Made by a program: the position numbers and the translations under genes. 52,857 nucleotides of DNA from a virus: positions 1 to 52,857 of the IMG/VR virus record IMGVR_UViG_3300045970_000732, one strand, 5' to 3'. Below are positions 3,873 through 39,000 of the stretch, in pieces (position 1 is the stretch's first letter; the number at the start of each line of letters is the position of its first letter). A model generated the notes under the pieces. It was not told the origin of the DNA. It did no database searches and saw only the letters and a program-made list of their open reading frames with translations.

Positions 3873-6773
3873 TTAGGCCATAGATTGTTGGTAAATTTCA
3901 CGCTGTAAATCGTTTGTTGCCTGAACGGTATCGTGTATTTTCTCAAGCGTTGATAACATGGCCATTACAGCCTTGTCAGATATTGGTGCTGCGGCATTCT
4001 GCACCTTCTTTTCATCTGGTGTTGCAGCTCCAGTACCACTGGGTTTTTGTGCTTGGGAAGGCGGTGGTGTCGGTGGCCATGGCACAGTCGTCACCGGTGA
4101 AGTAGCAGTTGGTGCTACTACAGGTGCTACTGGGGTTTGCGGCGTTTGTGACATGATCACTCCAGGGGACGGCGCTGGCATTGTTTTCGTTGCCTCCTCC
4201 TGAGTCATAGGTCGTCTAATTGGCTCGGTGTGAAGGTGGCCTCCGGTGCCACCTTCCGATAGTTTATACCACTCATTCAGTACAATCCTGTAACCGTTTG
4301 CTTCAGCCACTTTCTTCATGTCCGCTTCGAATTGGTCAATAACTCTCTTTTGAGCATCAGATAGAGCATTCTTACCCTTTTTGATATCTTCTAGTGTAGG
4401 TTTAGCTACTCCATTAGCAGCCCACATTTCATCAGTGATAGCCAGATCAACAGCCCCTCGTTTATGTGGATCGTTTTCGCCCTGATGTCCCTTGAAAGTA
4501 GCGGAATCATCCATTGCGGTAACTTTACCCGAGAATCCAGAAGATCCTAATGCTTGGAGAAACGTATTCTCCAACGGTGTGATTGCACCACTGCCAGCGT
4601 TCTCACCAACAACGAATTTACCAGTACCCGGTAATGGACCTGGGATGGGTGGATTCAACGATAGTATGTTTTGCTCAGTCTTTTTCCGTTCATCGGCTTG
4701 AGAGAGTAATGCCCTATCCGCTGTTAATTTAGCCTCTTCAGCCACCTTTTTGTCCTGGTCGAGTTGCGCCTTCAGTATATCATACTGTCCTTGTAGTAAT
4801 TTCGTGTTCTTTTCCTGCAGTTCCGCCATTTTTTTATTGATTTCAAGGGCCTCTTGATCAGTTCGTTCAGCAAAGCCTTTTTTATTCATGCCATTCTTTT
4901 CTCTGAACTCGGTAATTGCTGCACGGCCTCTAGCCTCTATGTCATTGTATCTTGCTTGCTCAACTGCGGTCTCATGCGATTGCGCATTGGGGTTCTTTCG
5001 CTTTTTAGATGATTCGAGTCGGGCCTTTTCTTCTTCAAGCTTTTCAATTCTAATTTTGTCTGCTGCCATACCATTGAATCCTTGCGTGGCATGCATGCCC
5101 ATCAAGCTTGATGTGGTAGGTTTCTTTATTTCAGCAATTTCGGCGTTGACTTTCTGTATCTTTGCGTTTAGTGATTCCTCAGTCGAGAACATGTCCATGA
5201 TGTCCTGACCTGCTTTATCAGCCCCCGGGAACCACAATGATTTTACCAATTTACCCATGGTGTATCCAAAGCTTTGCATACCTTCCATCAACATCGTAAA
5301 TGCATTGGTGACAGGACCAGATAACATATTGGCAAATGCATCCATAGCCTGATGTGCTGCCAGTTCAACAGCATTCATCTTAGTGAGGGCTTTCACACGG
5401 GCATCGTCTTCTGATTTACCAGACATTTGCAGAGCGATCAGATTTCTGTTGCGTGTTGCTGCCTCCTCGAAGCTCAGTCGCTGGTTTTGTACTACAGCAT
5501 TCTGCATAAGTTGTAGGTTACCAGCAAATATCTCTCCTGCTCCCTCAGGCATCATCAATCTGACGGTTTCAAATAGCTTGGATATAACTGCCTCTTGTCT
5601 TTTACCAGCGTCTGCTATGTTTCCGATGTTGTCGTACCCCTTCAACACCCGCATCGTAGCACGCATTATTATGTTACCGGTTGTTGCTGTGTAGTCGGTC
5701 AGTAATTTACCATCATTTGCAAGAGACAGCAACATAGACCCGAATTCCTTACTATTAGCCCCTAACAATCGTCCCAGTTCACTAGTTGCCATCAATCGGG
5801 TATTCTGTTCAGCTTCCATACTGGCAACGTTTTTTGCAGCAAGCTTCTTACGATCTTCATCATACTTACCTGTTTCGTCGGCTGCTACTGCTCTTTCGGC
5901 GTCTATTTTTCTTGCTATCTTTGCGTTTGCAGTTTGCCATGCCAAATGCCCTGCTGCTGCCTCTTGTCCCTGCCGAAGCTGATCACTGTTCATACCAGTT
6001 AGTGTTTGTAGCTCTATCATAGCATCAATATACTTCAACGATTGAATACGCAGCGCCTCGGGAGTCTTGGCAAGTGACATGCTGCTTGTCACCATTGTCT
6101 TTACGAAATCTGTTTGCGCTCCGGTAACCTTCTCCTGAGACCATCCAAGACGCATGTACTGGTCACGCTGGTCCTGAGTCAGAGAAATCATTCCGGTGAA
6201 AGTGGCAAGTCCCTCCTGCAGAGTATCACCAAGACCACGTAGGTTGGTGTTTAGTCTGCCGGCATTTTTAGTTATGATGTCTATGTTGCCAGAAAAATAA
6301 CCCGCTTTGAGGGTCATTTCGAGTAATTTGCCTGTGGTCAGTCCAACACTACCACCAAAATCACCCATGTCAGTGAAGGCTTTTATCAGGGCATCATTTT
6401 GTTTCAGAACAAGATCAGTGGAGATACTGATTGCTTTCGCCAGCAACGCAAGTGGGACACCAATGGCCATAAGAGGGCCCTTGAGCATCATAGCAAGCCC
6501 ACCTAGGGCATCAGCAGCACCTGACACCGACGATGAATATTTGTTCATCGTGCTGTTGGTGTTCATCACCGTTGTGCCTAATGTTGACACTGCCTTAGAA
6601 GCGTCACCAGAGGCCTTACCAAGGGCAGCCGTTCTAGCGGCATCTCTGGCTGCATCGGCAGCTTTCGCAGCGCCTGCTGCCTCTCGGGCGCCGGCCTCTA
6701 TTTGACCAGCTTCGGCGAGGTGCGCGAATGCCTCAATTAGCTGTTCTGTTCCGAGTATGGCTGCTGCTGACAT
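3873..6773 (-). CDS. Tail tape measure protein with C-terminal peptidase-like segment
   Basis: A 966-residue protein. The N-terminus is Ala-rich and helical (about 1-65). A hydrophobic segment follows (about 90-115, LGGLAMMLKGPLMAIGVPLA), then long helical stretches and coiled coil rich in K and E (about 540-690). Length and layout fit a tape measure protein, which sets tail length and is ejected during infection. A compact region at about 745-850 carries HKRGAVDLAIT and later GGTGGHLHTEP, reminiscent of the zinc-binding H...D...HxH pattern of M15-type peptidoglycan peptidases; this is a tentative comparison. A proline-rich linker and a short helical tail end the protein. The start has GGGGA eight bases upstream. 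Unlike T4, the gene sits directly upstream of the portal gene and is divergent from gene 26. Confidence 0.75.
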   Translation of the reverse strand: MSAAAILGTEQLIEAFAHLAEAGQIEAGAREAAGAAKAADAARDAARTAALGKASGDASKAVSTLGTTVMNTNSTMNKYSSSVSGAADALGGLAMMLKGPLMAIGVPLALLAKAISISTDLVLKQNDALIKAFTDMGDFGGSVGLTTGKLLEMTLKAGYFSGNIDIITKNAGRLNTNLRGLGDTLQEGLATFTGMISLTQDQRDQYMRLGWSQEKVTGAQTDFVKTMVTSSMSLAKTPEALRIQSLKYIDAMIELQTLTGMNSDQLRQGQEAAAGHLAWQTANAKIARKIDAERAVAADETGKYDEDRKKLAAKNVASMEAEQNTRLMATSELGRLLGANSKEFGSMLLSLANDGKLLTDYTATTGNIIMRATMRVLKGYDNIGNIADAGKRQEAVISKLFETVRLMMPEGAGEIFAGNLQLMQNAVVQNQRLSFEEAATRNRNLIALQMSGKSEDDARVKALTKMNAVELAAHQAMDAFANMLSGPVTNAFTMLMEGMQSFGYTMGKLVKSLWFPGADKAGQDIMDMFSTEESLNAKIQKVNAEIAEIKKPTTSSLMGMHATQGFNGMAADKIRIEKLEEEKARLESSKKRKNPNAQSHETAVEQARYNDIEARGRAAITEFREKNGMNKKGFAERTDQEALEINKKMAELQEKNTKLLQGQYDILKAQLDQDKKVAEEAKLTADRALLSQADERKKTEQNILSLNPPIPGPLPGTGKFVVGENAGSGAITPLENTFLQALGSSGFSGKVTAMDDSATFKGHQGENDPHKRGAVDLAITDEMWAANGVAKPTLEDIKKGKNALSDAQKRVIDQFEADMKKVAEANGYRIVLNEWYKLSEGGTGGHLHTEPIRRPMTQEEATKTMPAPSPGVIMSQTPQTPVAPVVAPTATSPVTTVPWPPTPPPSQAQKPSGTGAATPDEKKVQNAAAPISDKAVMAMLSTLEKIHDTVQATNDLQREIYQQSMA

Positions 6774-6818: not shown

Positions 6819-6851
6819 CATCGGCCCACGATGCCCCATAAAGGAAAACCA

Positions 6852-7679
6852 ATGATTGAGAATAACCCCCTGAAACAATATTTTCGCCACCCGGCGATTT
6901 ACCTGCGTCTACCAAGTCTAGGCGAGGGGTACGCAAGTGATGTTGTGGAACTACCGACTAACGGTGAGCTTCCTGTTTATCCAATGACCGCGCTTGACGA
7001 CATCGCCACGAAAACACCCGACGGACTGTTCAATGGATCGTCAGTTGTTCATATCATCAAGAGTTGCATCCCCGGTATCAAGGACCCTTGGAAGATTACA
7101 AGCGTTGATATCGATGCTGTTCTTGTTGCGATCCGGATCGCATCTAACGGAGACTCCATGGAGATATCATCTACTTGCCCGGCATGTGGTGAGGGTGAAA
7201 CATACATGGTGAAGCTCCCAGCGATTCTGGCACAAATCAAACCCGGAAATTTCACAACTGAATTTCCAGTCAATGATCTTATGATACAGTTCAAACCGCT
7301 TACCTACAAGGAAATGACCGAGGTTAGTATAGAACAAATGGACCTTCAGAGACTACTAGTTTCCATATCAAATATGGAAGATGTGACTGAAAGGGCCAAA
7401 AAGAGCAAAGAAGCGCTGGACGGTATAACCAAAATGACGATGCGTATCATAACAAAAACCATCGCTCATATCAGGACGCCGGCAGCCTTTGTTGACCAAG
7501 TTGATTTCATCAGTGAATTTTTACAAAACTGTGACAAGAAAACCTTTGAACAGATAAAGGACCATGCTACCGGTCTGAAGTCGATGTCAGAAATCAAACC
7601 AATTCATATCGTGTGTGATTCATGTAAACACGAATACGACCAACCATTCTCTGTTGACGCCGGCTCTTTTTTCGGCTAA
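6852..7679 (+). CDS. 26: Baseplate hub / tail assembly protein gp26-like
   Basis: A 275-residue protein from the ATG at 6852 (MIENNPLKQYFRHPAIYLRL), preceded by AAAGGAAAA; an earlier in-frame ATG at 6831 lacks this signal. Two CxxC pairs, CPACG in the middle and CDSCKHEYDQPF near the end, suggest a zinc site, as in gp26-type proteins of T4-like phages. Conserved stretches are PVYPMTALDDIATKTPDGLF, IKSCIPGIKDPW and AVLVAIRIASNG. T4 gp26 (208 residues) takes part in hub assembly. The last codons contain the slippery run T TTT TTC followed by a hairpin, and the -1 frame then stays open for 76 codons, so part of the product is probably extended into the next frame. Confidence 0.82.
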   Translation: MIENNPLKQYFRHPAIYLRLPSLGEGYASDVVELPTNGELPVYPMTALDDIATKTPDGLFNGSSVVHIIKSCIPGIKDPWKITSVDIDAVLVAIRIASNGDSMEISSTCPACGEGETYMVKLPAILAQIKPGNFTTEFPVNDLMIQFKPLTYKEMTEVSIEQMDLQRLLVSISNMEDVTERAKKSKEALDGITKMTMRIITKTIAHIRTPAAFVDQVDFISEFLQNCDKKTFEQIKDHATGLKSMSEIKPIHIVCDSCKHEYDQPFSVDAGSFFG

Positions 7680-7716
7680 AGCTTTTACACCTTGACCATG
7701 AGGGTGTTCAAAAGCT
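7667..7716 (+). promoter_or_regulatory. Programmed -1 ribosomal frameshift signal at the end of gene 26
   Basis: The heptamer TTTTTTC (7667-7673) is in the correct phase (T TTT TTC, codons TCT TTT TTC). Six bases later begins a hairpin: left arm AGCTTTT + ACACC (7680-7691), an 11-base loop, right arm GGTGT (7703-7707), a two-base bulge, AAAAGCT (7710-7716). That is 12 base pairs, at the spacing expected for an efficient -1 frameshift. The 0 frame stops at TAA 7677-7679. The -1 frame opens only after a TGA at 7655-7657, so the heptamer lies in the only window where a shift would work. Confidence 0.75.
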
Positions 7717-7903
7717 GTTAGATGGAATGGAAGCTGAGTGTAAAGCGATAAAGAAAAGCGCACTCAGTTTATCATGGTATATGCGCGGTGGTGCTCCGTA
7801 CGCAGACGTAATGAACATGTCTAGTGAGGAACGGGTTCTCATCACTGAAATCATCACCTCTAATCTCGAAACCACAAAGACCTCAAAACTACCGTTTTTC
7901 TAA
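7673..7903 (+). CDS. gp51-position small protein, probably made as a gp26 fusion by -1 frameshift
   Basis: This is the -1 frame following the slippery site, 76 codons to TAA at 7901-7903. It begins RLKLLHLDHEGVQKLLDGME and ends LETTKTSKLPFF; the centre reads ALSLSWYMRGGAPYADVMNM. The helical, charged sequence before the first ATG (7727) looks like real protein, and that ATG has no ribosome binding site at a useful distance, so a fusion to gp26 is more likely than a separate start. If the ATG were used the product would be 58 residues. T4 places gene 51 after 26, but T4 gp51 is much longer, so the name reflects position only. By analogy with lambda G/GT and P2 E/E', a tail assembly chaperone role is possible. 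Confidence 0.7.
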   Translation, partial: RLKLLHLDHEGVQKLLDGMEAECKAIKKSALSLSWYMRGGAPYADVMNMSSEERVLITEIITSNLETTKTSKLPFF

Positions 7904-8581: not shown

Positions 8582-8693
8582 GAGATGGTCTCTGGTGTTT
8601 GGCGACAGGTTAGTGTCTAAAATTTGGCGACGGGCTAGCGTCTTGATATTTGGCGACAGGTTAGTGTCTTGATGTAATATGAGATGGTCTCTG
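8582..8693. repeat. Direct repeat GAGATGGTCTCTG flanking the triple hairpin array
   Basis: GAGATGGTCTCTG occurs at 8582-8594 and again at 8681-8693, on either side of the three 26-base hairpin repeats. Each copy is itself a small dyad (GAGA...TCTC), so on the RNA it could form a short stem. The right copy lies just inside the expected start of the leftward transcript. Confidence 0.8.
8598..8674. repeat. Three tandem 25-26 base hairpin repeats with compensatory changes
   Basis: Units at 8598-8622, 8623-8648 and 8649-8674 share TTTGGCGACRGGYTAGYGTC. Units 1 and 3 carry stem arms GACA/TGTC, while unit 2 carries GACG/CGTC: an A-T pair is replaced by G-C, so the base pair is preserved while the sequence changes. 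This points to selection on RNA or DNA secondary structure. Confidence 0.8.
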
Positions 8694-8716: not shown

Positions 8717-8737
8717 GTGAAAATATTTCTATTTCAC
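8717..8737 (-). terminator. Possible terminator of the 55-47-46 operon
   Basis: On the minus strand arms GTGAAA (8737-8732) and TTTCAC (8722-8717) enclose the TAG stop of the GIY-YIG gene in the loop and are followed by TCGTTTTATC. The stem is short and the T run interrupted, so this is a weak candidate. Confidence 0.35.
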
Positions 8738-9178
8738 CTTTTTCATCAGGATTTCATCGGGGTGTTCAACCGGGGGCAAAAACTTGACTCCGGAGATTAT
8801 ACCGTTGAAGTATTTTCTGGTTCCATCAGGCATCCTTGCCCGTAGAACTTCTTCTGTTATTTGGTAGCGAACCTCAGCATAAACCAGTGAGGCACGGGTC
8901 TTGTGTAGGGACTCGATTTCAAACCTGAACTTATCCTTCCCAACAAGCTCAATGGCTTTGTTGATGTGGGTGGACGAACTGGTATAGGTCTTCCAGTCAG
9001 ATTCTTTGATTACTTTTTTCTTATTCACTTTACCCTTGACTGCCTTTCGCAGGTGCTGGTGGAACTGTTTTTTGCCGATATATTCTTTGCCGGTGGCAAT
9101 CTCGGTGATCCGATAGATGAAACCGAACCATTCCGTGATGTCGAACTCATGCTTGAATTCCCAGTGACCTTTGTCCAT
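8729..9178 (-). CDS. GIY-YIG superfamily nuclease-like protein
   Basis: A 149-residue protein. Residues 17-38 read EWFGFIYRITEIATGKEYIG, with the FIY and YIG elements of the GIY-YIG fold. Then comes a basic stretch (KAVKGKVNKKKVIKESDW) and KTYTSSSTHINKAIELVGKD, KFRFEIESLHK, a pattern shared by small GIY-YIG proteins of phages. It lacks the NUMOD-type DNA-binding tail of the other two endonucleases in the window, so it may be a resident phage nuclease (repair or recombination, given its link with 46/47) rather than a homing enzyme. The start at 9178 has GAGGGT, and CATAAATA lies 16 bases upstream. Confidence 0.68.
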   Translation of the reverse strand: MDKGHWEFKHEFDITEWFGFIYRITEIATGKEYIGKKQFHQHLRKAVKGKVNKKKVIKESDWKTYTSSSTHINKAIELVGKDKFRFEIESLHKTRASLVYAEVRYQITEEVLRARMPDGTRKYFNGIISGVKFLPPVEHPDEILMKKVK

Positions 9179-9215: not shown

Positions 9216-11300
9216 TCATTCGTTTTCCGTATCCGCATCAGTTGAGTAGCTTGTGAACCCGTTGCTTTTCACAACTCGGAGAACCGAACTCACTCGTGAA
9301 GCCAGATCGTCCTTGTGACTGATCAACCATATGGATTTGTGCCGATTTCGTGAGAGGTCCTTTAGCACGCCAATGGAGTTTTCAACGCCCACTGAGTCGG
9401 TACCGTTATCAAGCAGTTCGTCAATGAACATGACATTGATTGGCTTGTATAGGTTCTCCCACACATCGCGGAATGCCCACGACAGCGCCAAGATAACGCG
9501 ATTCATCTCACCCCGTGACAGGTTATGGAAGTCAAGGTCACGCCCAAGCTCTGTGATCTGAACATTCAGGTCATTTTGGAACAGCACTTGATGTGGTAAA
9601 CCGATCTTGTCGAGGTAGTGGGTCATGCGCTGATTCAGGTATGACAGATTCTGGTCAATGATTTTCTTTCTGACGAACGAATCCTTGCTTGTCAGCAGGT
9701 CCAGTAGGAACTTTTGATGCTCCATGGTCTTGTTCATGGCGTTCATGGCGTCAAAAGACACAACCTGAATGGCCTTGGTCTCCATATCCACGATCTGTTC
9801 GGCATACGGGTCAGACTCCTGGTGTTTTGACTCAATCTGGCTGATAAGACTGTCAACCCGGGTGTTGTGTTCAACCGCCTCAACCTCAGTATCATACACC
9901 GTCTTTGGTGGTAGACCTACTGGGACAACCTCAGGCAGCAACTCGGCGATGTGTTCAGCATACGGGTCAACCTCGTTGACCTTCAGTTCAATCTTGGCTA
10001 ATAACGAATCGCTCTCGCTACTGTGGCGGATAGCCTCAGCTTCGGTGCGATAGTGAGTAGAGGGCATCTTGCCAAGCACGACCAGTTCAGCCTCAATCCC
10101 AGATACAAGCGCTTGCGCCTGTGTCAGGTGATTCACGGCGAACGCCAGTGAGGCCTCTTTAGCCTTGACCACATCAGTGTGTTTCTCATCATGGAGGTCC
10201 TGTCCGCAGGCATAGCACTTGTGTTCTTGCAGAGAGGCAAGCTCACCCTCAATCTTGACACGATCATTGGTGTAGCGAACGATATCGGCTCGTCCCCGTT
10301 TCAGTTCAATGTCCTGTGCGGCCTTGTCTCGCACCCGTTGGTTATACTCGGCAACCTCGCGATGTTTGATCAGTTCGGCATCAATGTCAACCCGGTGCAT
10401 TTTCACAGCATCAGCCCGCAGCACCGCAACATCCCGATCACGCTTCTCAGACCAGGCGGTCTGTCTGGCAACCAAGGCGGTGTAGGTGTCAAAGACACTC
10501 TTGTGTTGATTGTAGATCACCAAGTCTCTATGAGCCTGTAGCTCGGCAACAATGTCAATCTTTGAGAGGTCGTCGTATTTTGTGACAAGCGCCTGTAGAT
10601 CAGTCTCCTGCTTCGCCGCCCATAACCGTTGCCGCCTCTTCAGGTTTTCAATCTGTTCAGCAATACGGACATTGGCATCTTCAATCGCCTTCACCCGAAA
10701 CTCTTCGGTCTTGATGGCATCCTTACTTGTGGTCAGTAGACCCTTCACAATCTCGGCCTTCTCAGACAGGATGGTGATACCAAGCAGTTGTTCAATGATG
10801 TCTCGTTGATCACCAGCAGCCATTGCCAGAAACGGCTTGGTGTAGGTGTTCAGAGCAACGATGTGTTGGAACATATCCGCTGACATGTTGATGATCTTCT
10901 CAATCGCCGCCTGAGTTTCTTTGTTCTCTCCTTGAGCATCGTCTGGGGTTTTCAACAGGTTGCTGTTCACATAAAACTTCAGAATATTGGGACGGCGACC
11001 ACGCTCAATCTTGTATTCAACGCTGTCAATGCTGAACTCAAGCGTGACCAACATGCCCTTGGCATTGGTTCGGTTGATCAGGTTGTCCTTGCGGATACCG
11101 TTGATGGGCACACCGAAGAGGGCATATGACAGGCCTTGGATGAGCGAGGTTTTTCCGGTGCCGTTACGAGCACCATCACCACCCAAGTCCAGATTGTCCC
11201 CAAGGATCAGTGTCAGGTCTTGTCGGTCAAAATTGACCGCTTGCGTGATCGCCCCGATACTAAGGAAGTTCCGGAGGGTGATATTTTTTATTTTGATCAT
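9216..11300 (-). CDS. 46: Recombination endonuclease subunit gp46 (Rad50/SbcC-like ATPase)
   Basis: A 694-residue SMC-type ATPase. Walker A GARNGTGKTS is at residues 43-52, the zinc hook CYACG lies near 361-365 in the middle of long coiled coils, the ABC signature LSRGEMNRVILAL near 594, and Walker B INVMFIDELLDNG near 622. T4 gp46 has 560 residues; the extra length is in the coiled coils, where two segments look duplicated (SDSLLAKIELKVNEVDPYAE and VDSLISQIESKHQESDPYAE). With gp47 it processes DNA ends for recombination and recombination-dependent replication. Its ATG overlaps the gp47 stop by four bases (ATGA), so the pair is translationally coupled. Confidence 0.95.
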   Translation of the reverse strand: MIKIKNITLRNFLSIGAITQAVNFDRQDLTLILGDNLDLGGDGARNGTGKTSLIQGLSYALFGVPINGIRKDNLINRTNAKGMLVTLEFSIDSVEYKIERGRRPNILKFYVNSNLLKTPDDAQGENKETQAAIEKIINMSADMFQHIVALNTYTKPFLAMAAGDQRDIIEQLLGITILSEKAEIVKGLLTTSKDAIKTEEFRVKAIEDANVRIAEQIENLKRRQRLWAAKQETDLQALVTKYDDLSKIDIVAELQAHRDLVIYNQHKSVFDTYTALVARQTAWSEKRDRDVAVLRADAVKMHRVDIDAELIKHREVAEYNQRVRDKAAQDIELKRGRADIVRYTNDRVKIEGELASLQEHKCYACGQDLHDEKHTDVVKAKEASLAFAVNHLTQAQALVSGIEAELVVLGKMPSTHYRTEAEAIRHSSESDSLLAKIELKVNEVDPYAEHIAELLPEVVPVGLPPKTVYDTEVEAVEHNTRVDSLISQIESKHQESDPYAEQIVDMETKAIQVVSFDAMNAMNKTMEHQKFLLDLLTSKDSFVRKKIIDQNLSYLNQRMTHYLDKIGLPHQVLFQNDLNVQITELGRDLDFHNLSRGEMNRVILALSWAFRDVWENLYKPINVMFIDELLDNGTDSVGVENSIGVLKDLSRNRHKSIWLISHKDDLASRVSSVLRVVKSNGFTSYSTDADTENE

Positions 11301-24035: not shown

Positions 24036-27000
24036 ATGGCCCCAAGAATCAGAACCCTTACATTTTTGCCGGAAATCTTCAAGACCGAGACAAACACTCA
24101 GTTTTTACAAGCAACACTGGACCAGCTAACTGCCCAGCCTAATCTTGAGCGAATTGAGGGATATGTCGGTAGTAAGTTCGGGTATGGCGTTGACGCCACT
24201 AAGAACTATGTCCTTGAGAGCACCAAGCCGCGGACCGATTATCAGCTGGCCCCGGCAGTGGTATTCACCAAGACGAACAACAGCACTGCCCAAGACTTCA
24301 TCAGCTACCCTGGTATTATTGATGCTCTGAAGGCCGAAGGCGGAGTCACAAACGATCATTCTCGCCTGTTCGGCAGTCAAATATATTCCTGGGACTCGTT
24401 TGCTGACCTTGACAAGATCACAAACTTCAACCAATACTACTGGTTACCTGAAGGACCCGAAGCCGTTACTATTGCCTCGTCAATCGTGTATAGCCAGGCT
24501 GCGTATGAAGTTACCGACGAAGTTACGAGCTACGCCATCACTGTAGATGGTCAGGCAACTCCGGTAAATAATCCTAACATTACGCTGATGCGCGGTGGAT
24601 CGTACACATTCAAGGTGTCGCAGGGCTCGCCGTTCTGGATTCAAGGCTCACCTGGTCTTACTGGGTACAGCGCCACACAGACAAACCTACAGACCCGTGA
24701 TGTCGTCGGGGTCACAAACAACGGCGCGTCCACCGGTGAAATCACCTTTGATGTGCCAAGCAATACAGCGCAAAGCGAGTACACTTCACTGCCAAATCTC
24801 ACTTCGAACCCATCGTTTACTGACTTCATTCTTGACTTTGTAAGCACAACACCATTTGCTGATATAGACGGAAAATTAGTAAGTGAGTTTGTTAATGGTA
24901 TCGACGGGGTTACCTCGATCAATGAAATGAACATCATGTTCTATGGTACCGCTGATCACAAACTCAATTTTTATACGGTTCAGTATGACATAACGAGTCC
25001 TGGGTCGTATACCGACCCTGTTATTAGACTGATAGCAGGGGCACTTATTCCAGAAAATTATAGAATTACCGCTGCTTCAGGTCTTGAGTATTCCAATCGC
25101 TCCTTCGTCAAGAAACCATCTGCTGATGTGACACTGATTCCATATCTCAGCACAATCCTTGATACGCTATACTACCAAGACGGCACTTCACCGAGTAAAG
25201 TTGGTATCATCAAAATCATTGATAGTAACAGTACCCATCAATTGGACATCACTGATATCATCGGTCAGAAAGCATACACCTCTGTCAATGGTGTGACATT
25301 TACAAACGGGTTGAAAGTCACCTTCGTGGGTGATGTGTATCCATTGGAATACAAAAACACACCGTTTTATGTCGAGGGTGTTGGTACTGCAATTGAACTA
25401 CTACCAGTAACAGACTTCGTTGCCCCTGAATTATTCACCAGCGCATCATACATACCATTTGACACGCAGGCATTTGACATTGGCAACTTTGACAGTAGCC
25501 TATATATCCCGTTGACACCTGACTACTTCACCATTGCCAGAAATGCCTCAAGCAAGAATGCATGGTCCAGAAGTAATCGTTGGTTCCACGTGGATGTCAT
25601 AAATGCGACTGCCACTCACAACAACAAACCAGAGCTTGCCACACTATACACAACAACTGCGAACAAAGCAAAGCGCCCAATTATTGAATTTTATCCGAAT
25701 ATTCGGTTGTTCAATTCCGGTGTCGTCGGTAAGAACCCAGTGGACTTCATTGACTTCCGTAGCACAGATGCCTTTGCTGATTGTGCTGGAAAGACACGCT
25801 ATCATCCTGATGTGGCATCGTTCACCGACTCGACGGCAGTGATTGCCGCCGCAACCACAACCACAACAACCACAATAAACCTATCCACTTCTGTGATCAC
25901 GGGTTCACTAGTAGTGGGGCAGTCTGTTGCTGACGCTGCTAATGTACTTCCATCATCCGCAGTGATATCTGCGCTTACTACTGTGACCTCCGCCGGATTT
26001 ACAAGAATCACCGGTGCTACCGTAACCTGGTCCGGCGACCACACCATTAGCACAACGACAACCTCTATAGTGACAACGCCCGACAGTGCCAACAACTACG
26101 AGTTATTTGATGGCGCCCGCATCATCTTCGCAGCAGATACAAACGCCGGTGTCAGAAACAAGATTTACCAGGCTAGACTGTCTGTGACGACACCAGGTCA
26201 ACAATTCATCACCCTGACTGAAACAAACGACAGTGTTGTCAACGAAGATGATCAGACATTTGTGTATCGCGGATACCAATACGCCGGAAAAGATGTTCAT
26301 TATCTTGGTGGCTACTGGTCAGACGCTCAGCAAAAGTCAATGATAAATCAAGCACCACTGTTTGATGTTTTTGATGACAACGGGATAAGCTTTGGTGATA
26401 CGTCGGTATATGCTGGCTCATCGTTCAAGGGCACGAAACTATTCGCCTATGGCATCGGCAGCGGCACTGATGACTCGGTGCTTGGGTTCCCACTGCGCTA
26501 TGGCTCGGTCAACAACATCGGTGATATCAGCTTTGACATCTCACTAAACATAGACACCTTCTCTCATGTTGTGAACTCACTTCCAGTCACGCAGAAGGTG
26601 AACACCGGATTCGTCCATCATTCTCACTTGGGAATGGGTACGATAGAGCGTCATATTGGATGGCAGTCGGCAATCGCCAGAAGCGAACAGTATCAAATAT
26701 TTGACTTCCCATATTATGCCGCACTTCCTAAAGTCATGGTATGTGATGTTGCAGCTAAATCTGCTTCAGTAAGCAAGTGGCCCACAGTCAAGGTGTATAT
26801 GAACAATGTGTTGATGAACAGCACCGAATACACACTGACCATCGGCACTTCAACGACCACAGTGACTTTGCTCGGAACCATCACCACCGATACAGCTATT
26901 CTAGTGGCGGTGTTGAGCGATCAGGTCAGTGCCGTAGCATACTATGACATCCCTACCAACTTCAACAGCAATCCATTGAACGCTGAAATGCAGGTGGCAA

Positions 27001-30000
27001 ATGTCGGAGACATCCGCCGTCATTATCAGTCAATATTCCATAACTCCCCTGACATGACAGGCGACTTGTTCGGGTCCAATAACTACCGTGATCTACCGAA
27101 CCAAATACCATATGGAACGAGCATCATCCAAAACAGTGCGTCATTGGTGTTGCCTGGAATATTCCTTAGAAAGAAAAATCATAATCTGTTCAACGCTCTG
27201 TTGTTCAACAGCAGAGAATACCTGACATTCAAATCTCTGTTGACTAACACCGTTGCCAATAGCGATTACACTGTGTCATTGACACCGTCAGATATGCTTG
27301 ATGATGCGATGATTCAAATCACCGCTGCTAAATCCGATACTGGGTCATTCTTCTGGAGCGATATGCTACCGTCCAAGGCGGCATTCATCTCTCATAGCTA
27401 CTTCTTCGCAAACTCAATGGACACCAGCGTGTTCCCACTGAGTAGAATATACGATTACACCACGGCGAATTACCATGGGGTGTTGGTATATCTGACCAGA
27501 AAAATAGCAGGACGAGTCCGAACCATACAGCTTGTCCGAGACATAGATTACACCATTGAAACGAGCCTGCCTAATGTAACTGTCACACGCGATCTGGCAC
27601 CAGGTGATAAGATCACAGTCAAGGAATTCAACCAGACATACGGCAGTTATGTGCCGAACACGCCTACTAAGATGGGAATGTATCCAGCCTCAGTACCAGG
27701 TGTTGTGCTTGACGATACCTTCATGACTCCGACATATTTTATCCGCGGTCATGATGGTTCCCTCACGAAACTATACGGTGATTACGATTCAGTAAACAAC
27801 CTGCTTGTTGACTTCAGAGACCAGGTTCTACTAGAGTTTGAAAATCGCATTTACAACAACCTCAAAATTTCAGCCGTTCTTCCTATTAGTGAAATGGATG
27901 TGATGCCTGGTTTCTTCCGTGATACTCCATTCAGTTACGATGAAATGATCGAGGTTTACTCCCCGGCATTTCTGAACTGGGTTGGTCAAAACAGAATTGA
28001 TTACAAATCGCAAGTTTACTCTGTGACCGATGAGTTCACCTACAACTATTACCAGACAAAAACTAAAGCTGGTAATGTCACAATGACTCCAGGGTACTGG
28101 AGAGGTGTATATACATATCTCTATGACACCTGCAACCCACACACAGCACCATGGGAAATGCTTGGTCACCGAGACATGCCATCATGGTGGACCGCACACT
28201 ATGGAGCAGCCCCATATACCAGTGACAACTTGGTAATGTGGACTGATCTGGCAAACGGACTCGACTGGAACAACGGCGATCCTGTGACGATCACTTCGGC
28301 TATTCGCCCAACGCTCCTCAGTATGCTCCCTGTTGATTCCAGTGGCAACCTGTTATCCCCCGCTGCCTCAATGGTCGGCAACAGCATCAATGCCAGTTAC
28401 AACCGTGCCTGGAAAGTCGGCGACATGGGCCCTGCAGAGGCAGCATATCGTCGCAGCAGTTCATGGCCATTCGATCTGATGCGTATATTCGCCCTGACAC
28501 AACCTGCGCAGTTCTTCAATCTTGGTATTGATCTGGACACCTACAAATACTCAGCAGAATTCGATCAGAACCTGGTGAACAATCGTAGTCACCTTGTGTT
28601 TGGTAAGATTCAGGTATATGGTTCTGGCTTACCAAAGACAAGCTACCTCAACTGGATAGTAGATTACGAAAAACAAATGGGTATTGATGCGACAACAAGC
28701 GTTTCCGAATCACTGAGAAATATTGATGTTCGCTTGGTCTACCGCCTCGCAGGCTTCAGTGACAAAAACATGCTGAAGTTCTATGTTGAAAAGGGAACAC
28801 CAAATAACAAGAACAGTTCGTTGCTAATTCCAGATGACAGCTTCAATGTGTTGCTGTATGATAACCAATCGTTCAACCAAATAACATACAGTGGTGTCGT
28901 CATTCAAATCACCACCACCGGATTCAAGGTGTATGGTAATTCTCAGGCGTATGCTTACTTCAAGACGCTGACACCAAAAATCAATGGAAACTACGATAAA
29001 GTTACGATTGAAAACATCAGCGTACAGCTAGCCAACGACTATTTCTCTTCGGAGATGCTTGTGCCGTATGGCACCGAATTCGCCAGTGTTCAGGAAGTAT
29101 GCCAGTTCCTTGAGAACTATGGCCGTTATCTCGTTCAACAGGGCTGTAAGTTTGACCTCATTGAAAACGGTCTTGAGATTACATGGCGCCAAATGGTCGC
29201 TGAGTTCGTGTATTGGGTTCAACAAGGGTGGGAAGTTGGGTCTCTCGTAAATATCAACCCGGCCGCAACGAAATTGACCATTGACAAAGACAGCAATATC
29301 GTCCAGCCGCTCACCCTACAACAACAAAACTTTGTGCTGAATCAGGACCTGTATCCGATCCAAGCGTCTGATCTTGTTGTCACTCGTAATAGCACCCTAT
29401 TCTCAGTTAGCCCGCTGCGCCAAGGTGACACCATTAGTTATGGCGTGTTCAACGTCAGTGCTATAGAACACGGAGTCGTGTTTGATAATGTCACTGTGTT
29501 TGATGATGTGATTTACAACCTGTCAACAGGTCTGAGACAGTCACGCATCATCCTCAAAGGAACAAAAACCGCCGCTTGGGATGGGTCTGTTGATGCCCAA
29601 GGCTTCATACTGAATCAGGATAACATACTGGACTGGGATTCTAATACCAAGTACACCACTGGTTCTATTGTCAAGTACAAGAACAAATACTGGATCGCCA
29701 CCAAGATCATCCAAGCAGCATTGACATTCGAGGATACATCCTGGAAACAGACTGACTACAACACCATTCAGAAGGGCTTGCTGCCTAATCCAAGCACACG
29801 CTCATACGAGAGTATCCTGTATTATGATGCGAACAAAGCAAATCTGGAGAACGATGCCGACCTGTTGAGCTTCTCTCTAATCGGTTATCGCCCGCGCGAA
29901 TATCTGAACATCGCTGACTTGTCGGATGTTACTCAGTTGAATGTATATCGGAATCTGATCAAGAACAAGGGAACTGCCATTGCAGCAAACACCTTCAAGG

Positions 30001-33000
30001 GTTCTACACTCTCACAAGACACCATTGACTATGACATATATGAGAACTGGGCCATAAAGACATCATCGTTTGGTGGCGTAATGAACAGCAACTTCATTGA
30101 TGTTCGGTTGAATGAGTCGCTGATGACTGGAAAACCGTCGATCATCGGGCTTACAAACGGTAGCGTAATAGCAGGAACTGAACAAGCAGTGCCAATCCAA
30201 TCACTGTATAACTACGGTAGAGTGGTCACTGATGTGAATGTGCTGCCAACACTACAGGGCTTGTCACATACCGCTATTCTGCCAGACGCTGGATATGTCA
30301 ACTTTGATGATGTGAAAATGTCATCATATTACTATTCGGGAATGTCCGTAGCCAAAGACGCCGCAGGAACCGTTATCCCGTTGTCGCAACTTTATGTTCG
30401 TGATTATGTCTGGTTGGCAAATCATCTTGGCACATGGCAGGTCTACACTCCGGTATCGCTTGGTCAAATTACTACTGCGAAAAATAATCTGAACGGCACA
30501 GCGACAATCACTTTTGCTAAGGCACATTCGCTGGCAAAATATCAACCATTCGCCATTGTCGGCCTCTCCAATGTCGTTGACGGTTATCACACCGTGGCAA
30601 CGATCATCGACGGTTATCGTCTGACTATCAATCTGAATCTGCCATCAACGATCACTTCAGTCACTGGTGTGGCGGTTGGTTTTGCGTTCCAAAAACAGCG
30701 CGTTGATACGCCGGCAAACATCGGTGATCTTCCGTTGGCAGAAGCCGAGTTCATCAAGAATAAGGTGTGGGTTGATGAAGGAATTGACGGTAACTGGGCA
30801 GTCTATCGTAAGAGCATCAATTATCTGCACGAATCATCAATGACGATTGATGCCACCGGTCAATCATATGGCAGTGCTGTCGCATATACTACCAGAGGCG
30901 GCTACCTAATTGGCAATTCCGTCGCAAAAACGATCCAGCGCTACACATTCAATCCACTTGATAACACTTATGGACTGACTGAAACTATCACTGGTACCGA
31001 CGGCTTTGGTAAAATCATTGCTCACGCTGATAACAGGTTTGTTGTCGCATCTGATGCCACTGTGACGGTATACGAGCTTGAAGTCTCGCAACTGGTCAAC
31101 AGTCTAACACCAATACAAACGATTGCGTCCGCTGGTGTCACCAGCATTGCCCTGTCGGGTGATACGAATTGGTTATACTTGGCTAACGCCACCGGCATCA
31201 CGCTGTATCACTTCAATGGGACCACATACATATCGTCAACAGTGTTGTCAACACTCGCTGGTCAGGCATACGGAAAGTCAATCACCACTAACTACTATGG
31301 TGACATGCTCGTTGTTGGCGCGCCATATAAGGCAAACGGATCATTCGCACAGTGCGGTGCTGTATATGTCTACAGCAGATTTGAACAACGCCACGAGGTA
31401 CTCTACGGATACACTTCGTATGATGTCCTTCTGGCTGCTACACAAGGCACCGATGCCACTCTCGTTGATGTCTATGTCAACGGCACAGAAATATCTACCT
31501 ATACTCTGGCAGCAGGTAAGGTTACTATTACATCGTCGGTGACTGCCGGCGATATTGTTCGTGTAAGCGGCAACTCTCTTGTACTGGTTCAGGAATTTGC
31601 TTCCCTTGAGGCTGCTCACACCGGAGTACAATTCGGTAATTGTGTCACCGCAAATCAATCCGGAAACGAAATTCTCGTTGGTGCTCCGTTTGAACTTGTG
31701 ACACAAACAAGTGAAGGTGCCGTATACAGATTTACGGATGGTGGTGCTGACTACGGAACAATCATCGGCACCACAGCAGCAAATGTACTGACTCAGGGTA
31801 CTCTATTGATCAATGGTTATGCCGTTACGATCCCAGTTGGTAACGCCACGGCGGCAGCGACAGCAATCAACTTTGCCAAGATCACTAATGTTCAGGCAGT
31901 AGCCGACTCCGGTATACTCACAATAGGACTGATCAATCTGGCTCTGGCGCAAGCAACAGACAAGCTCACGCTAACAGCCACAACCACTGCGCTCATTCAA
32001 GAACTGGGAATACAGGTTTATACACCGACACAGACCATTACCAATATCCATTCATCTGGTGCCACTCAGTTCGGCTCGCTGGTCAAGTTCAACGATGCTG
32101 ATTCTATAGTCATATCGGCTCCATCGTCTACCAGATTCTCAGGCACAATGTTTGACTTCACAGACGATGAACACGACAACGACACCGTGTTTGATAACAA
32201 CACCACTCGTTTTGTGGATGAATTCAAGAACGCCGGCAGTATGTATATGTATGATTACCTAGGTGTTTACAACGAGACCCTTTCTAAGCCAGGGAAATTC
32301 GTGTACGCTCAGAGTGTCAATGATATTGGCGCTTCCTACGGTCTACAACCAATGTATGGCTACTCCGTTGACTTTCATGATAACCGTGTTGTCGTGGGTA
32401 CTCCGGGACAGCTAAATGGCACAGTGACAACCTATGTGAACGCCACTGGGGTTCGTGACTGGTCTATATTCCGCGCACCAAGTGCCATTGTAGATATCAA
32501 CCGCATTCAGGACATTCAGTTATACAGCGCAGAAACAAATACCACACTGGATCATCTGGACTTCATTGATCCATTACAAGGCAAGATCCTTGGCGCTGCC
32601 CGTGAAAATATTGATGTTGTGTCTAACATAGACCCAGCAGGATACACAACCGGAGTCAAGGGAAACATGGTGTGGGGGAATATGAATGTCGGTCAAACAT
32701 GGTTTGACACCTCAACGACACTCTTTGTCAACTACCACCAAGACGACCTCGTTTACAACAGCAAACACTGGGGAACCGTGTTCCCAGGTAGCGATGTCGC
32801 CGTATACACATGGGTCTCAAGTTCAACACCCCCGGCATCTTACCAAGGCCCAGGCACTCCGTATGATGTCACCAAGTATTCTATTGACTATGTAGTATCA
32901 GCAACAGGAACGCTTGTGCCATTCTATTGCTTCTGGGCACGAAATACCAATGTTGTATATACAAAAGCAGGCAAAACATTGTCTGATTCAAACGTCCAAT

Positions 33001-36000
33001 CGTACATCGCATCCCCGCTAAACTCGGGCGTGTCTTACTTTGCCCCATTGCTACCGAGCGCATTCGCCCTTTATAACTCGGCTGAAAATATCAACCATAC
33101 TGATTCTATCCTTCACGTTGGTTATGCCAACGGTGTGTCTGATGATGTGTCACATTCCCTACACGATCTGATTCGCACCGGGAACAAAGAAGACTTCCTT
33201 CCAGGTCTGCCATCTGAGTCAACAAATCATGTCCCTGAATCATTGTATGATCGGTTACTTGATAGTCTCTGTGGTGTAGATACATTCGGGGCAGTCGTTC
33301 CTAACCCGTATCTGCCTAAGCCTGTACAATATGGCATATTGGCACGACCTAACCAGAGTATGTTCATTGACCGCTTCGGCGCCCTCAAGAACTATCTGAT
33401 GTATGCCAACGCAGTGATGCTACAATATCCAATAGCAGAAACGAAACAACCGTCGATGCTTATGGCATCCGGACCATTCTACGACACAACCAAATACTGG
33501 AGTTATGTGGATTGGTGGGCAACTGGTTATAGCAGCGCAACAAAAGCAATCGTTCAAGTGGCGCAATACGCCGACCTCAGTCCGCTTGCTGCGTACCCGG
33601 GGCTAGTAGCTCAGGTGGCATCAAATGGTGATGGTAAATGGGAAACATACATTTACGATACGGCATGGACTCGAATCGGCCTCCAATCAGGCACGATTGA
33701 GTTTAGCAGCCTGTTGTGGGATTATGCCGCAGGCGGGTTTGGCTTCTCAAATAACTTCTTTGATACCACCCCATTCTCGGAATTCCCATCTGAAGAAACA
33801 CGGCAGATTGTTCGCTCACTCACTGAAGAAATCTACATTGAGGAACTTGCGATACATCGTAACAAGAGCTTGATTCTGTTGTTTGAATACATACAGAACG
33901 AAACTACCGGAGCCAACAACTATCTTCCATGGCTGAACAAGACATCGTTTGTTGATGTCAGTCACACCATCCGTGAATTGAAACCAAGCAAGGTGTTCCA
34001 GTCAGACAACAATGAGTTCCTTGAAGGTTATCTCAATGAAGTGAAACCATACCATGTGGTTATCAAAGAGTTCCTGTTCAAGTACACGAACCTGGATACC
34101 TTCACTGGTGTCATGACCGACTTTGATTTGCCGGCGACATTTGATGCCACTATAGAAAAATTCGTGTCTCCTGCTCTGGTGAACACACTCACCGGAGAGA
34201 CAAACGAATACCTTGCGACCGATCCAATCTGGACCACCACTCCATACTCTTCCTGGTATGCTGAACACGGGCTGAGCCTCACTGGTCTCCCAGACCAATC
34301 ACTGACTACCCTGTCATCCTATATCGCCCTGAACAGCGCAGCATTCTCCGTGGATAACGCCTATGGCTTCCCGACATCAGGCATCATCAAGGTAGATGAC
34401 GAGCATATCGGTTATTCAGTGGTTGATCGCAACGCCAGCACCCTCTCCGGTCTGTCCCGCGGAGCCAATGGCACCACAGTCACCACTCACGTCCCAGGCA
34501 CCGCAGTGATCATGGACCTTCCACCAGTCATCCTGCTTGACGGCGGCCGCGAATACGTTGAGCCACCGAAGATCATCGCCTATCTGGATCCGTCAACCCA
34601 CGCAGCACCATTGCGCCCTGCAGTGCTACAGGCTGTGATGAACCTAGACCAGATCCTACGCATCGACGTAATAGACCCGGGCCTTGGCTATGATGCCCTA
34701 CCTGAGATTTTGATCGACCCGGCAAAGACGGCAGTCATCCCAAGCTCCAGTACAAACACCAACATCGTGTCAAGCAACATCACCATGACAGTGCCATGGT
34801 TCGTGACCGGCGACATGGTCCGCTACGAAACAGGTGCCGGCACAACAGCCATTGGCGGCCTCGTCTCCGGTCAATACTACTACGTAGGCGTTCTTGAAAC
34901 GACACCTAAGCTTGTCTTGGCGCTATACAGCCGATACGCTGATGCCGTGAATAACCTCCGTCGTGTGTCACTGACGACTCTTGGCACCGGTCCAGAACAC
35001 CTATTCCATCTAACGGCCCGTGCCATTGCTGTCGCCACAGCAGAACCGATTCGTGAAAATCGCATGACGTTGCGTTTTGACAGAAGCACCTACAAATCTC
35101 ACATCCAGGATTGGACCTCTGGCGGGCTGTACGGTTCATTCTTCGCAGGAACAATGAACAACTCGGTGACCATCTCAAGTTCGTCGATATCCATGGAGAG
35201 CAGCCAGCCCTCGATTGACAACGTCCTGTCAAGCGGAGCAGGTGTCACGTTTGAAATCGTCAGTTCAACCTCGACAAACGACCTCACATGGTCGTCACGC
35301 ACAAGAATATTGACTGCCACGACATCAGCAGGCATCGTCACCATTGCGAACGCCCCCGGCGGCCCAGCAGGCTCCCCTGATGTGCTTCGTCCATGGGGAC
35401 CAGGTGATGTCGGCCCAATGGTTGGCTTCTACGTTGGAATGCCGATCAAGTTCAATGGTGGCATATTCGGCGGCATCGTCCCAGAAACGATCTACTATGT
35501 CGGCACCATGCTGACAGCTACAACATTCACCCTATGGACAACGCCAACGGGTGGAATACCGACCCTGACAGACACTGCCACTGGTGTTGCACCATGTTCG
35601 TTGTTCGTCGGCGAACTGACCAACACAGCGGTTGTCACCATTGACTACCCGGGTATCCTGCAAGTCACTGCGACCACATCAACCACTAACGCGATCACCG
35701 TGCCGATGACACTCAGCGGACAAGGCGGCACAAAATATTTCTATGTCGGCCTGCCGGTCTATTTCACCGGACCAACATTCGGTGGTATCGTGGAGAACGA
35801 GCAATACCATGTTACTACCATCATTGACCGAGAGCACTTCACCCTATCAAAAACGGATGGCCCATTGACACTGCCTATCATCAGCACCACAGATGCCGGC
35901 GACTTGATCAACCTCGCGGACCTTCACACGACCTACGGCCTGTTCGTAGACGACCGCGTGATATTCACAGACATGCGAGTGAACGCCCCTGACATGATCA

Positions 36001-39000
36001 CCGGCGTTCAGTATACAATCAGAACCCTTGGCAACACTGACTATACCCTCTACGGGGCAGAAATCAACGAAGTCGGACTGACATTCACCGCTACTTCCGC
36101 ACCAGCAACCGTAACCGCAGGAAGCTTTGTTATAGGAACGCAGTACCGAATCAAAGCTATAGGGAACACCGACTTTACTCTCATTGGCGCATCCGCCAAT
36201 GAAATCGGGCTTGTATTTGCTGCCACCGGAGTGGGTACTGGCACCGGTACTGCGTATGGTACTGGAACGGTCAATACGAAGAACCTAGGCGGTCTCATTG
36301 CAGGTACAACATACTACATCAGTAAGCTTGAGACCGGCGGAACATCGTTGACTGTATCAACAGCCCCGGGCATCACTCCGCTAGCTCTGACTACAGCAGT
36401 TGGTACTGCCAACATGACAAGTCAGCAAAAGACTGAGCCATTGACAACTTCAGTTGGATCAATGACACTAAACGTTGGTCTCCCTGTACACCCAGGACAG
36501 ATCGACGGTCAACAGTTTACGTTCTACTCAACTTCTGGGCAGTTCGCACAACCAGTATGGACGCTCACAAAGCAAATCTCCCTGAACATCACAGGGGCCG
36601 TAGCAAACAGTGTTCCAGGTGGCAACTATCTCTCCATAAGCAACCCTCCATATGAGTTTGCTGAGATGTATGTGAAGATGCCAGCCAAGACACCGATATC
36701 AATGCCAGCAACTTACTCCGGAGTTCTAGCTGCTAATACCACATACTACGTGAATGAAATCGGTAGCACCCACGCATTTATACTGAGTACTAACTCGTCT
36801 GACGTTCATACGAATTCGGCTATATCTAGCATTGTCTCTGGCTCGGACAGGTTAGTAACAGTTACATGCGCAACTCATACTTTTGTAAGTGGAGACTTTG
36901 TAACCATATCCGGTGTCACAGGAGAAACCCGATATAATGGGTCATTTACGATTATAGTATTAGACGCAAACACATTTACCTACACTGTAGTTGGTATGGG
37001 GGCACCAGCGGCTGTAATCAATAAGGGAAGTGCCGCTAGACACTGGATAGTTCTCGATGACGCAACCGGGTTCTATCCAAATATGAGTGTGACCCTCACG
37101 GGCGCCATCATTAGCCCTAGCTACTTCAATGGCACGACATGGGTTCAGAGTATCGCGGTCAATACGGTATATTACATAAAGACTGTTGATCACACCAATA
37201 ACCGAATCACTCTAGGTGTGCTCCCGGACGCTGGAATAGCAATCCCAGTGGCCGACGCTGTTTCCCCGAATGCCACATCGCTTCAAATCTCCGGTACGCC
37301 ATGGATCAGAATATCCGACACCGTTGGTGGGGCCGTGAAGGTGTTGTCTGCTTCTACCGCAGCGTACAACGACATCACCCTGCTCCAGACACCAGACACC
37401 CCGGCGCCAATCTTTGATGTGAGTTACAAGCTAGGCGGATACCGCGCTGTCATCCGTGAAGCTGGCAATGGCTGGGCCATTGGCAATCAAGTGACGATCC
37501 TCGGCTCTGCCCTCGGCGGAACATCCCCGGCGAACGACATGGTCATCACGATCAACGAAGTAAGCGCCCTTGGTGAGATCCTGTCATTGATCATCACAGG
37601 CGACCCCGCAGACATCACTGCGAAATACTACCTCAAGGTCATCTCTATGACCGAGTGTGAGGTGTATTCTGATCCACTGCTATCAATCCCAGTCAACAAG
37701 ACTGCGTTTGAGGTGTTTCATGGCATCAAATCAACGACGATCACTGCCACAACAGTAACCACAAATGTGCTGACGGCAGTAAGTGTGGCAGACTTCAGCA
37801 TCAATGATTCGGTTGTGTTCACGGGCACAACATTCGGTGGTATTGAATCTGGACGCACCTACTACATCAAGGCAACATCACCGTTGACCCTATCAAATAT
37901 CGTCGGTGGAACTACAGTGACGCTCTCGTCCGCCACAGGAACCATGACGATGGCTAAGGCAGGTGACTTCGTGTTGTTGCCAGAACCGTTCTACTTCCAA
38001 CAGTCTCTGGTGAAATACAATCACAAGGTGTATCAATGTATCATAAGCAACAACGATGCCGAGTTCATCTTCGGTAAGTGGGAGCTACTTGATTCTGGCA
38101 ACCGCCGCCTGAATGCGCTGGACCGTATCAATGGCTATTACGAGCCAACTGTCAATATGCCTGGCAATGACATCACTCAACTACTGGATGGTGTCGAGTA
38201 TCCGAACAGCATCTACAAAGGCAATGCGTTCAAGCCAGAAGATCAGTTTGATCTTGATGTGTTGCTCAGCGACAAGCCATTCTACCCGACAGAAGTGACT
38301 ACCACATCTGTTCTGTGGAACGGAACGACCTACATCGCCACAGCCAACACACCTACATATTCTGCCATTATCAACAGCACTGATGCTGTTCTGTGGAATC
38401 AAGATATCAAATCCGGTCAGCCACTTGGAATGACAGACATTGTATTCTCTGGTGATCTGTATGTCGCAACAACTACAAACTTGGCTATGCCAATACTTAC
38501 GAGTGTTGATGGTCTGAATTGGAGTGCAACCGGTGTCTACACACCGTGGGGCGCCACACAACCATTCACCCCTGTCAGCCTAAGCGCATCAGGAGCAAGA
38601 ATGTATAGTGTCACCTGGCACGACGGACTGTTCGTTGCAGTCGGTGATGTGATCATGACCAGTACCGACGGAATACATTGGAACGAGACATACAAGTTCT
38701 GGGACAACGGACTTGAAAACGTGTTGCTATCAGTACAACACACGACGATTACCACTACTGTAACCATTGATCAGTTCATTGCTGTGGGTTACGGTGCTGG
38801 AACTGGCGCCATCATTGGACAACGCATTGGTATCATGCTCACAAGCTTAGATGGTCAAACATGGCTTCCATCTCCAATGGCATCAACAACCGGATTAGCT
38901 GGTATAGCAGCAAGCGGCACGACTAACGTGGTAGTTGGAAACGACAATGCCATATATTGGTACGAACCGGGTAGCAACTGGACATTAGTAGCTGGACTGA

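What the first reader, a model, noticed from the sequence alone, without database searches (positions are those of the whole stretch)
7655..7903. Programmed -1 frameshift joining gp26 to the gp51-position protein
A correctly phased T TTT TTC heptamer, a six-base spacer and a 12-bp hairpin lie precisely in the 22-base window where the two frames overlap. The downstream frame lacks a ribosome binding site before its first ATG and has protein-like sequence before that ATG. This mirrors the lambda G/GT and P2 E/E' tail chaperone frameshifts, but at the T4-type gene 26/51 boundary, where I do not know of a described case.
Basis: partly seen in the sequence, partly recalled or inferred. Interest (0 to 1): 0.78.

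Follow-up and report, generated by a model that had tools for sequence, protein, structure and literature searches.

The report
Tail-chaperone frameshift in T4-like jumbo phage
A large T4-like phage makes two versions of a tail-assembly helper protein by having some ribosomes slip back one base at a TTTTTTC signal; the signal is real and deeply conserved, but this kind of frameshift in T4-like phages was already published.

Summary
T TTT TTC lies at 7667-7673 in phase with the gp26-family gene (6852-7679), followed by a 6-nt spacer and a 12-bp hairpin. The -1 frame is open from 7658 to 7903, overlapping by 22 nt. Among 183 distinct gp26 homologues, from enteric, rhizobial and Pseudomonas jumbo phages to cyanophages, 181 carry in-phase TTTTTTC or TTTTTTT with an open -1 frame running at least 152 nt past the stop. 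None of 644 other ORFs in these loci does. The downstream frame has no start site of its own. So a programmed -1 frameshift, making gp26 plus an alpha-helical C-terminal extension, is close to certain as a sequence inference, though not shown experimentally. The best reading is a tail assembly chaperone pair (TAC-N and TAC-NC, as in lambda G/GT) acting on the neighbouring tape-measure candidate. One label needs correcting: in T4, gene 51 is divergent from gene 26, and T4 gp51 is itself a gp26-like domain plus a C-terminal domain, i.e. the hard-wired counterpart of the frameshift product. This was described for T4-like phages by Vladimirov et al. 2022, so it is a new member of a known kind.

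The parts
6852..7679 (+). gp26-family protein, tail assembly chaperone short form (TAC-N), 275 aa; the longer ORF reading starts at 6831
   Evidence: PF12322 1.1e-13, phrog_150 1.1e-17; AAAGGA Shine-Dalgarno before ATG 6852; AlphaFold pLDDT 89.5, matches viral baseplate-hub/gp26 models, best E 2e-24
6840..6845 (+). Shine-Dalgarno-like AAAGGA of gp26
   Evidence: sequence; 68 of 73 relatives have an SD-like motif before gp26
7667..7673 (+). slippery heptamer T TTT TTC
   Evidence: TTTTTTC or TTTTTTT in 181/183 distinct homologues
7674..7679 (+). 6-nt spacer containing the zero-frame stop UAA (7677-7679)
7680..7716 (+). stimulatory hairpin candidate, 12 bp with a 2-nt bulge
   Evidence: MFE -17.2, z -3.4; 80.8% of cells paired and 49 doubly changed cells against 21.3 shuffled across 65 distinct relatives
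7667..7903 (+). -1 frame C-terminal extension (TAC-C), 78 codons FFRLKLL...LPFF; frame open from 7658
   Evidence: relatives in Atu_ph07 and Phosso; length 78 codons in 73 of 74 family members; helical model pLDDT 83.7
3873..6773 (-). neighbouring divergent 966-aa protein, tape-measure candidate
   Evidence: relative in the same place in 65 of 73 loci; CBB counterpart is an abundant virion protein; no family match of its own

Best explanation
The gp26 gene (6852-7679) and the -1 frame (7667-7903) form one tail assembly chaperone cistron. Most ribosomes stop at UAA 7677 and release the short gp26-family protein (TAC-N, 275 aa). A minority, held up by the hairpin at 7680-7716, slip back one base on U UUU UUC (tRNA-Phe pairing again on UUU UUU) and continue into the -1 frame, giving a longer protein (...SFF-RLKLL...LPFF) with a helical C-terminal extension (TAC-NC). 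By analogy with lambda G/GT, many TAC-N and a few TAC-NC would coat the tape measure protein, probably the adjacent 966-aa protein, and the C-terminal extension would recruit tail tube subunits. Shown by sequence: slippery site, frame, conservation, lack of separate initiation. Supported but weaker: the hairpin. Inferred: slippage efficiency, chaperone function, tape-measure identity.
For: Heptamer, phase and overlap. In-phase TTTTTTC/TTTTTTT with open -1 frame in 181/183 distinct homologues against 0/644 other ORFs. Nucleotide-level constraint: the codon before Phe-Phe varies (10 codons, 9 amino acids) yet always ends in T (181/181, 64% expected from usage), and the first Phe is always TTT (68% expected). 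The -1 ORF is 78 codons in 73 of 74 family members, has no stop in 73/73 while both other frames have stops in 73/73, and changes most at codon position 3; 2/73 have an SD-like motif before its first start, against 68/73 for gp26. Protein-like conservation begins at the slip site (FFR..LL). Hairpin. In SP-15 the order is sheath, tube, gp26, small ORF, tail protein with a tape-measure match, the canonical G/GT place. In the CBB virion proteome the tape-measure candidate CBB_251 has 29 peptides and 50% coverage, while gp26 (CBB_250) is named only in a passage on another protein, not in the table, as expected of a chaperone. T4 gp26 is listed as a hub assembly chaperone.
Against: No peptide, reporter or ribosome profiling data. 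The hairpin is not universal: several jumbo and cyanophage members have no significant structure downstream, RNAalifold gave no consensus pairs, and the arms encode conserved residues. The tape-measure candidate has no family match. The gp26 model matched no solved structure, so the TAC fold was not tested by comparison. The CBB record itself labels gp26 'structural protein'.
Confidence: 0.9

Rival explanations
1. The downstream ORF is a separate small gene made by its own initiation or by termination-reinitiation at the gp26 stop.
For: A minority of relatives have a start codon close to the junction (ATG at codon index 3 or 4 in 14 of 73; Phosso's CDS is annotated from an ATG overlapping the gp26 TGA); 121Q, P-SSM4 and others are annotated as separate genes.
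Against: The window has no start codon before 7727, which would cut off conserved residues FFRLKLLHLDHEGVQKLLDG; SD-like motifs in 2/73; the slip site is invariant although a separate gene would not need it.
Confidence: 0.05
2. The long form arises by RNA polymerase slippage on the T6 run (an added U), not by ribosomal slippage.
For: A run of six T, seven in XacN1 and CM1.
Against: A run ended by C and kept at TTTTTTC in 179 of 181, fixed in codon phase, fits tandem tRNA slippage; a 3' hairpin with compensatory changes in the window's group fits ribosomal pausing.
Confidence: 0.04
3. The frameshift is real but gp26 is a structural baseplate hub subunit and the extension serves the baseplate, not tape-measure chaperoning.
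For: Databases name the family baseplate hub; older genetics placed gp26 in the T4 hub (PMC3004832).
Against: gp26 is not in the CBB virion table while its neighbour is abundant there; gp26 is listed as an assembly chaperone in T4; position next to tube and tape measure in SP-15; Vladimirov et al. 2022.
Confidence: 0.08
4. Sequencing or assembly error splitting one gene.
For: None beyond this being a metagenomic virus record.
Against: Same arrangement in 181 distinct loci including many isolate genomes.
Confidence: 0.005

Closest known systems
Tail assembly chaperones of T4-like phages (Vladimirov, Gautam and Davidson 2022, Virology 566:9-15)
   Same: gp26-family TAC-N gene with a poly-T -1 slippery site near its 3' end (as cited in PMC12846349); T4 itself uses separate short and long genes (as cited in PMC10885494).
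   Different: The full paper was not available, so I could not check whether the window's own group or RaK2-type jumbo phages are included.
Lambda G/GT
   Same: -1 frameshift at the end of a short chaperone, long form with C-terminal extension, next to the tape measure gene.
   Different: Slip site is U UUU UUC rather than G GGA AAG (the latter from my own knowledge); gp26 is about twice the size of gpG and has four conserved cysteines; no sequence relation detected; here the tape-measure candidate is divergent rather than downstream.
Vandenendeviridae/Andersonviridae TAC (PMC12846349)
   Same: -1 frameshift with a poly-T motif (GTTTTT).
   Different: Different phage families; slip-site context differs.
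T4 gp26 and gp51
   Same: gp26 is the TAC-N homologue; gp51 is gp26-like plus a C-terminal domain, equal to the frameshift product.
   Different: T4 has no slip site in gene 26; the long form is a separate, divergent gene.

Membership tests
T4 gp26 family (PF12322 / phrog_150) | Significant profile match over most of the protein | tested here: met
   51.8 bits against a cut-off of 24.5; phrog_150 over residues 12-275
-1 programmed frameshift (X XXY YYZ type) | In-phase slippery heptamer in the overlap of the two frames | tested here: met
-1 programmed frameshift (X XXY YYZ type) | Downstream stimulatory structure a few nucleotides 3' of the heptamer | tested here: inconclusive
   Strong in the window and its close group with compensatory changes, not general across the family, no RNAalifold consensus
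-1 programmed frameshift (X XXY YYZ type) | Fusion protein made in the cell | not testable with these tools
   needs mass spectrometry or a reporter
Tail assembly chaperone (TAC-N/TAC-NC) | Short and extended form from one start site | tested here: met
   sequence inference: downstream ORF lacks initiation signals, length nearly constant
Tail assembly chaperone (TAC-N/TAC-NC) | Gene adjacent to the tape measure gene | tested here: inconclusive
   Adjacent 966-aa protein conserved in 65/73 loci but unnamed by profiles; SP-15 neighbour has a tape-measure match
Tail assembly chaperone (TAC-N/TAC-NC) | Absent from mature virion | tested here: inconclusive
   CBB_250 is not in the main-text virion protein table, yet labelled structural in the record
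Tail assembly chaperone (TAC-N/TAC-NC) | Binds tape measure protein and tail tube protein | not testable with these tools
   needs co-purification

The most novel reading that the evidence does not exclude
The frameshift is the ancestral state of the whole T4-like gp26 family. T4 proper lost it by duplicating gp26 and hard-wiring the long form as gp51, while SP-15 moved the extension to the +1/-2 frame on the same T run. One locus would then show three ways of making the same pair of proteins.
Probability: 0.45. Interest if true: 0.4.

Novelty: new member of a known kind. Interest (0 to 1): 0.3.

Why it matters
It extends the published tail-chaperone frameshift of T4-like phages to a large environmental group and to jumbo phage records in which the extension is annotated as an unrelated hypothetical protein or missed, and gp26 as a 'baseplate hub'. 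Those annotations should be joined. It also explains why T4 gp51 resembles gp26 with an added C-terminus.

Tried and rejected
A search with the broad gp26 alignment failed for lack of a conserved stretch; narrower alignments worked. RNAalifold gave no consensus structure for the group, although counting the window's own hairpin showed compensatory changes. Fold searches gave no solved relative for gp26 or the extension, so a fold-level TAC test was not possible. The extension matches no Pfam family credibly, and its relation to the cyanophage extension is not significant on its own (probability 3%), only over the full fusion profile. A DNA-level search of the locus found nothing in phage records. 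Rfam and tRNA scans were empty.

Full report
Observation. The window is a 52,857-base virus record. A gp26-family gene ends at 7679 and carries T TTT TTC at 7667-7673 in the correct phase; the -1 frame is open from 7658 to 7903; the spacer is 6 nt and the hairpin 12 bp. The start is better placed at ATG 6852, behind AAAGGA, than at 6831.

Is it chance? I collected gp26 homologues from phage records and IMG/VR. Of 183 distinct loci, 179 have TTTTTTC and 2 have TTTTTTT in phase, all with the -1 frame open at least 152 nt past the stop. The two exceptions are T4 and Bacillus phage SP-15; two further Straboviridae, phiAS4 and AM101, fell below the profile cut-off and also lack the site. Of 644 other ORFs in the same loci, none combines such a heptamer with an open -1 frame of that length. 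The constraint is at the nucleotide level: the residue before Phe-Phe varies but its codon always ends in T, and the first Phe is always TTT.

Is the downstream frame translated by frameshifting? In 73 relatives it has no stop, while both other frames always do; substitutions concentrate at third positions; its length is 78 codons in nearly all; SD-like motifs precede its first start in 2 of 73, against 68 of 73 for gp26. Conserved residues start right at the slip site, upstream of any start codon in the window. Separate initiation is possible in a minority of relatives with an ATG at the junction, but cannot explain the window.

Hairpin. The window's hairpin is significant (z -3.4). Across 65 distinct relatives of the window's group 80.8% of cells pair (slid controls 37-48%), and 49 cells are changed on both sides against 21.3 in shuffles. 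The arms also encode conserved amino acids, RNAalifold found no consensus, and several members of other groups lack a clear structure, so I treat it as a likely stimulator in this group, not a family-wide feature.

What it does. gp26 matches PF12322 and phrog_150. In T4, 26 and 51 are divergent genes, not neighbours in tandem. T4 gp51 matches the gp26 family over residues 1-201 (Pfam) and the small cyanophage 'gp51' ORF family over its C-terminal part (phrog_634); a profile of cyanophage frameshift fusions aligns to T4 gp51 over nearly its whole length. So T4 gp51 is a hard-wired equivalent of the frameshift product. The neighbouring 966-aa protein is conserved in place in 65 of 73 loci. Its CBB counterpart by position (CBB_251, 722 aa) is an abundant virion protein, whereas gp26 (CBB_250) is not in the main-text virion table. 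At 0.15 nm per residue 722 aa gives 108 nm, against a reported CBB tail of 123 nm including a 14.7-nm baseplate; this is suggestive only. In SP-15 the order is sheath, tube, gp26, small ORF, tail protein with a weak tape-measure match. Together these point to a tail assembly chaperone pair.

Known or new. Atkins et al. 2016 wrote that the tail frameshift is widely conserved 'except T4' (PMC5009743). Vladimirov, Gautam and Davidson 2022 then identified the tail assembly chaperones of T4-like phages; I could not read it. PMC10885494 cites it for T4-like phages with separate short and long genes, and PMC12846349 for poly-T slippery sequences in TAC-N genes of T4-like phages. My own recollection of its abstract, not verified here, is that frameshifting is conserved in several T4-like groups and that genes 26 and 51 are the two forms in T4. 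The finding is therefore a new, well-supported member of a known kind.

Noticed in passing
L024 (Bacillus phage SP-15) 4142-4416: The extension after gp26 lies in the +1/-2 frame, not -1, over a GAATTTTTTC run: a possible different shift in the same family.
   Followed up: partly
window 8598-8673: Three tandem copies of a 26-bp unit TTTGGCGACAGGTTAGTGTCTTGATA in a region without clear genes.
   Followed up: no
window 8729-9178 (-): SegE-type GIY-YIG homing endonuclease (PF19835) next to the gene 46-like ORF at 9216-11300.
   Followed up: no
window 24036-43067 (+): A single 6343-aa ORF with almost no Pfam match (one weak E1_FCCH hit).
   Followed up: no
L001, L003, L004, L007 and other phage records: The frameshift extension is unannotated, truncated to a late ATG or called a separate hypothetical protein; no record viewed annotates the join.
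   Followed up: yes
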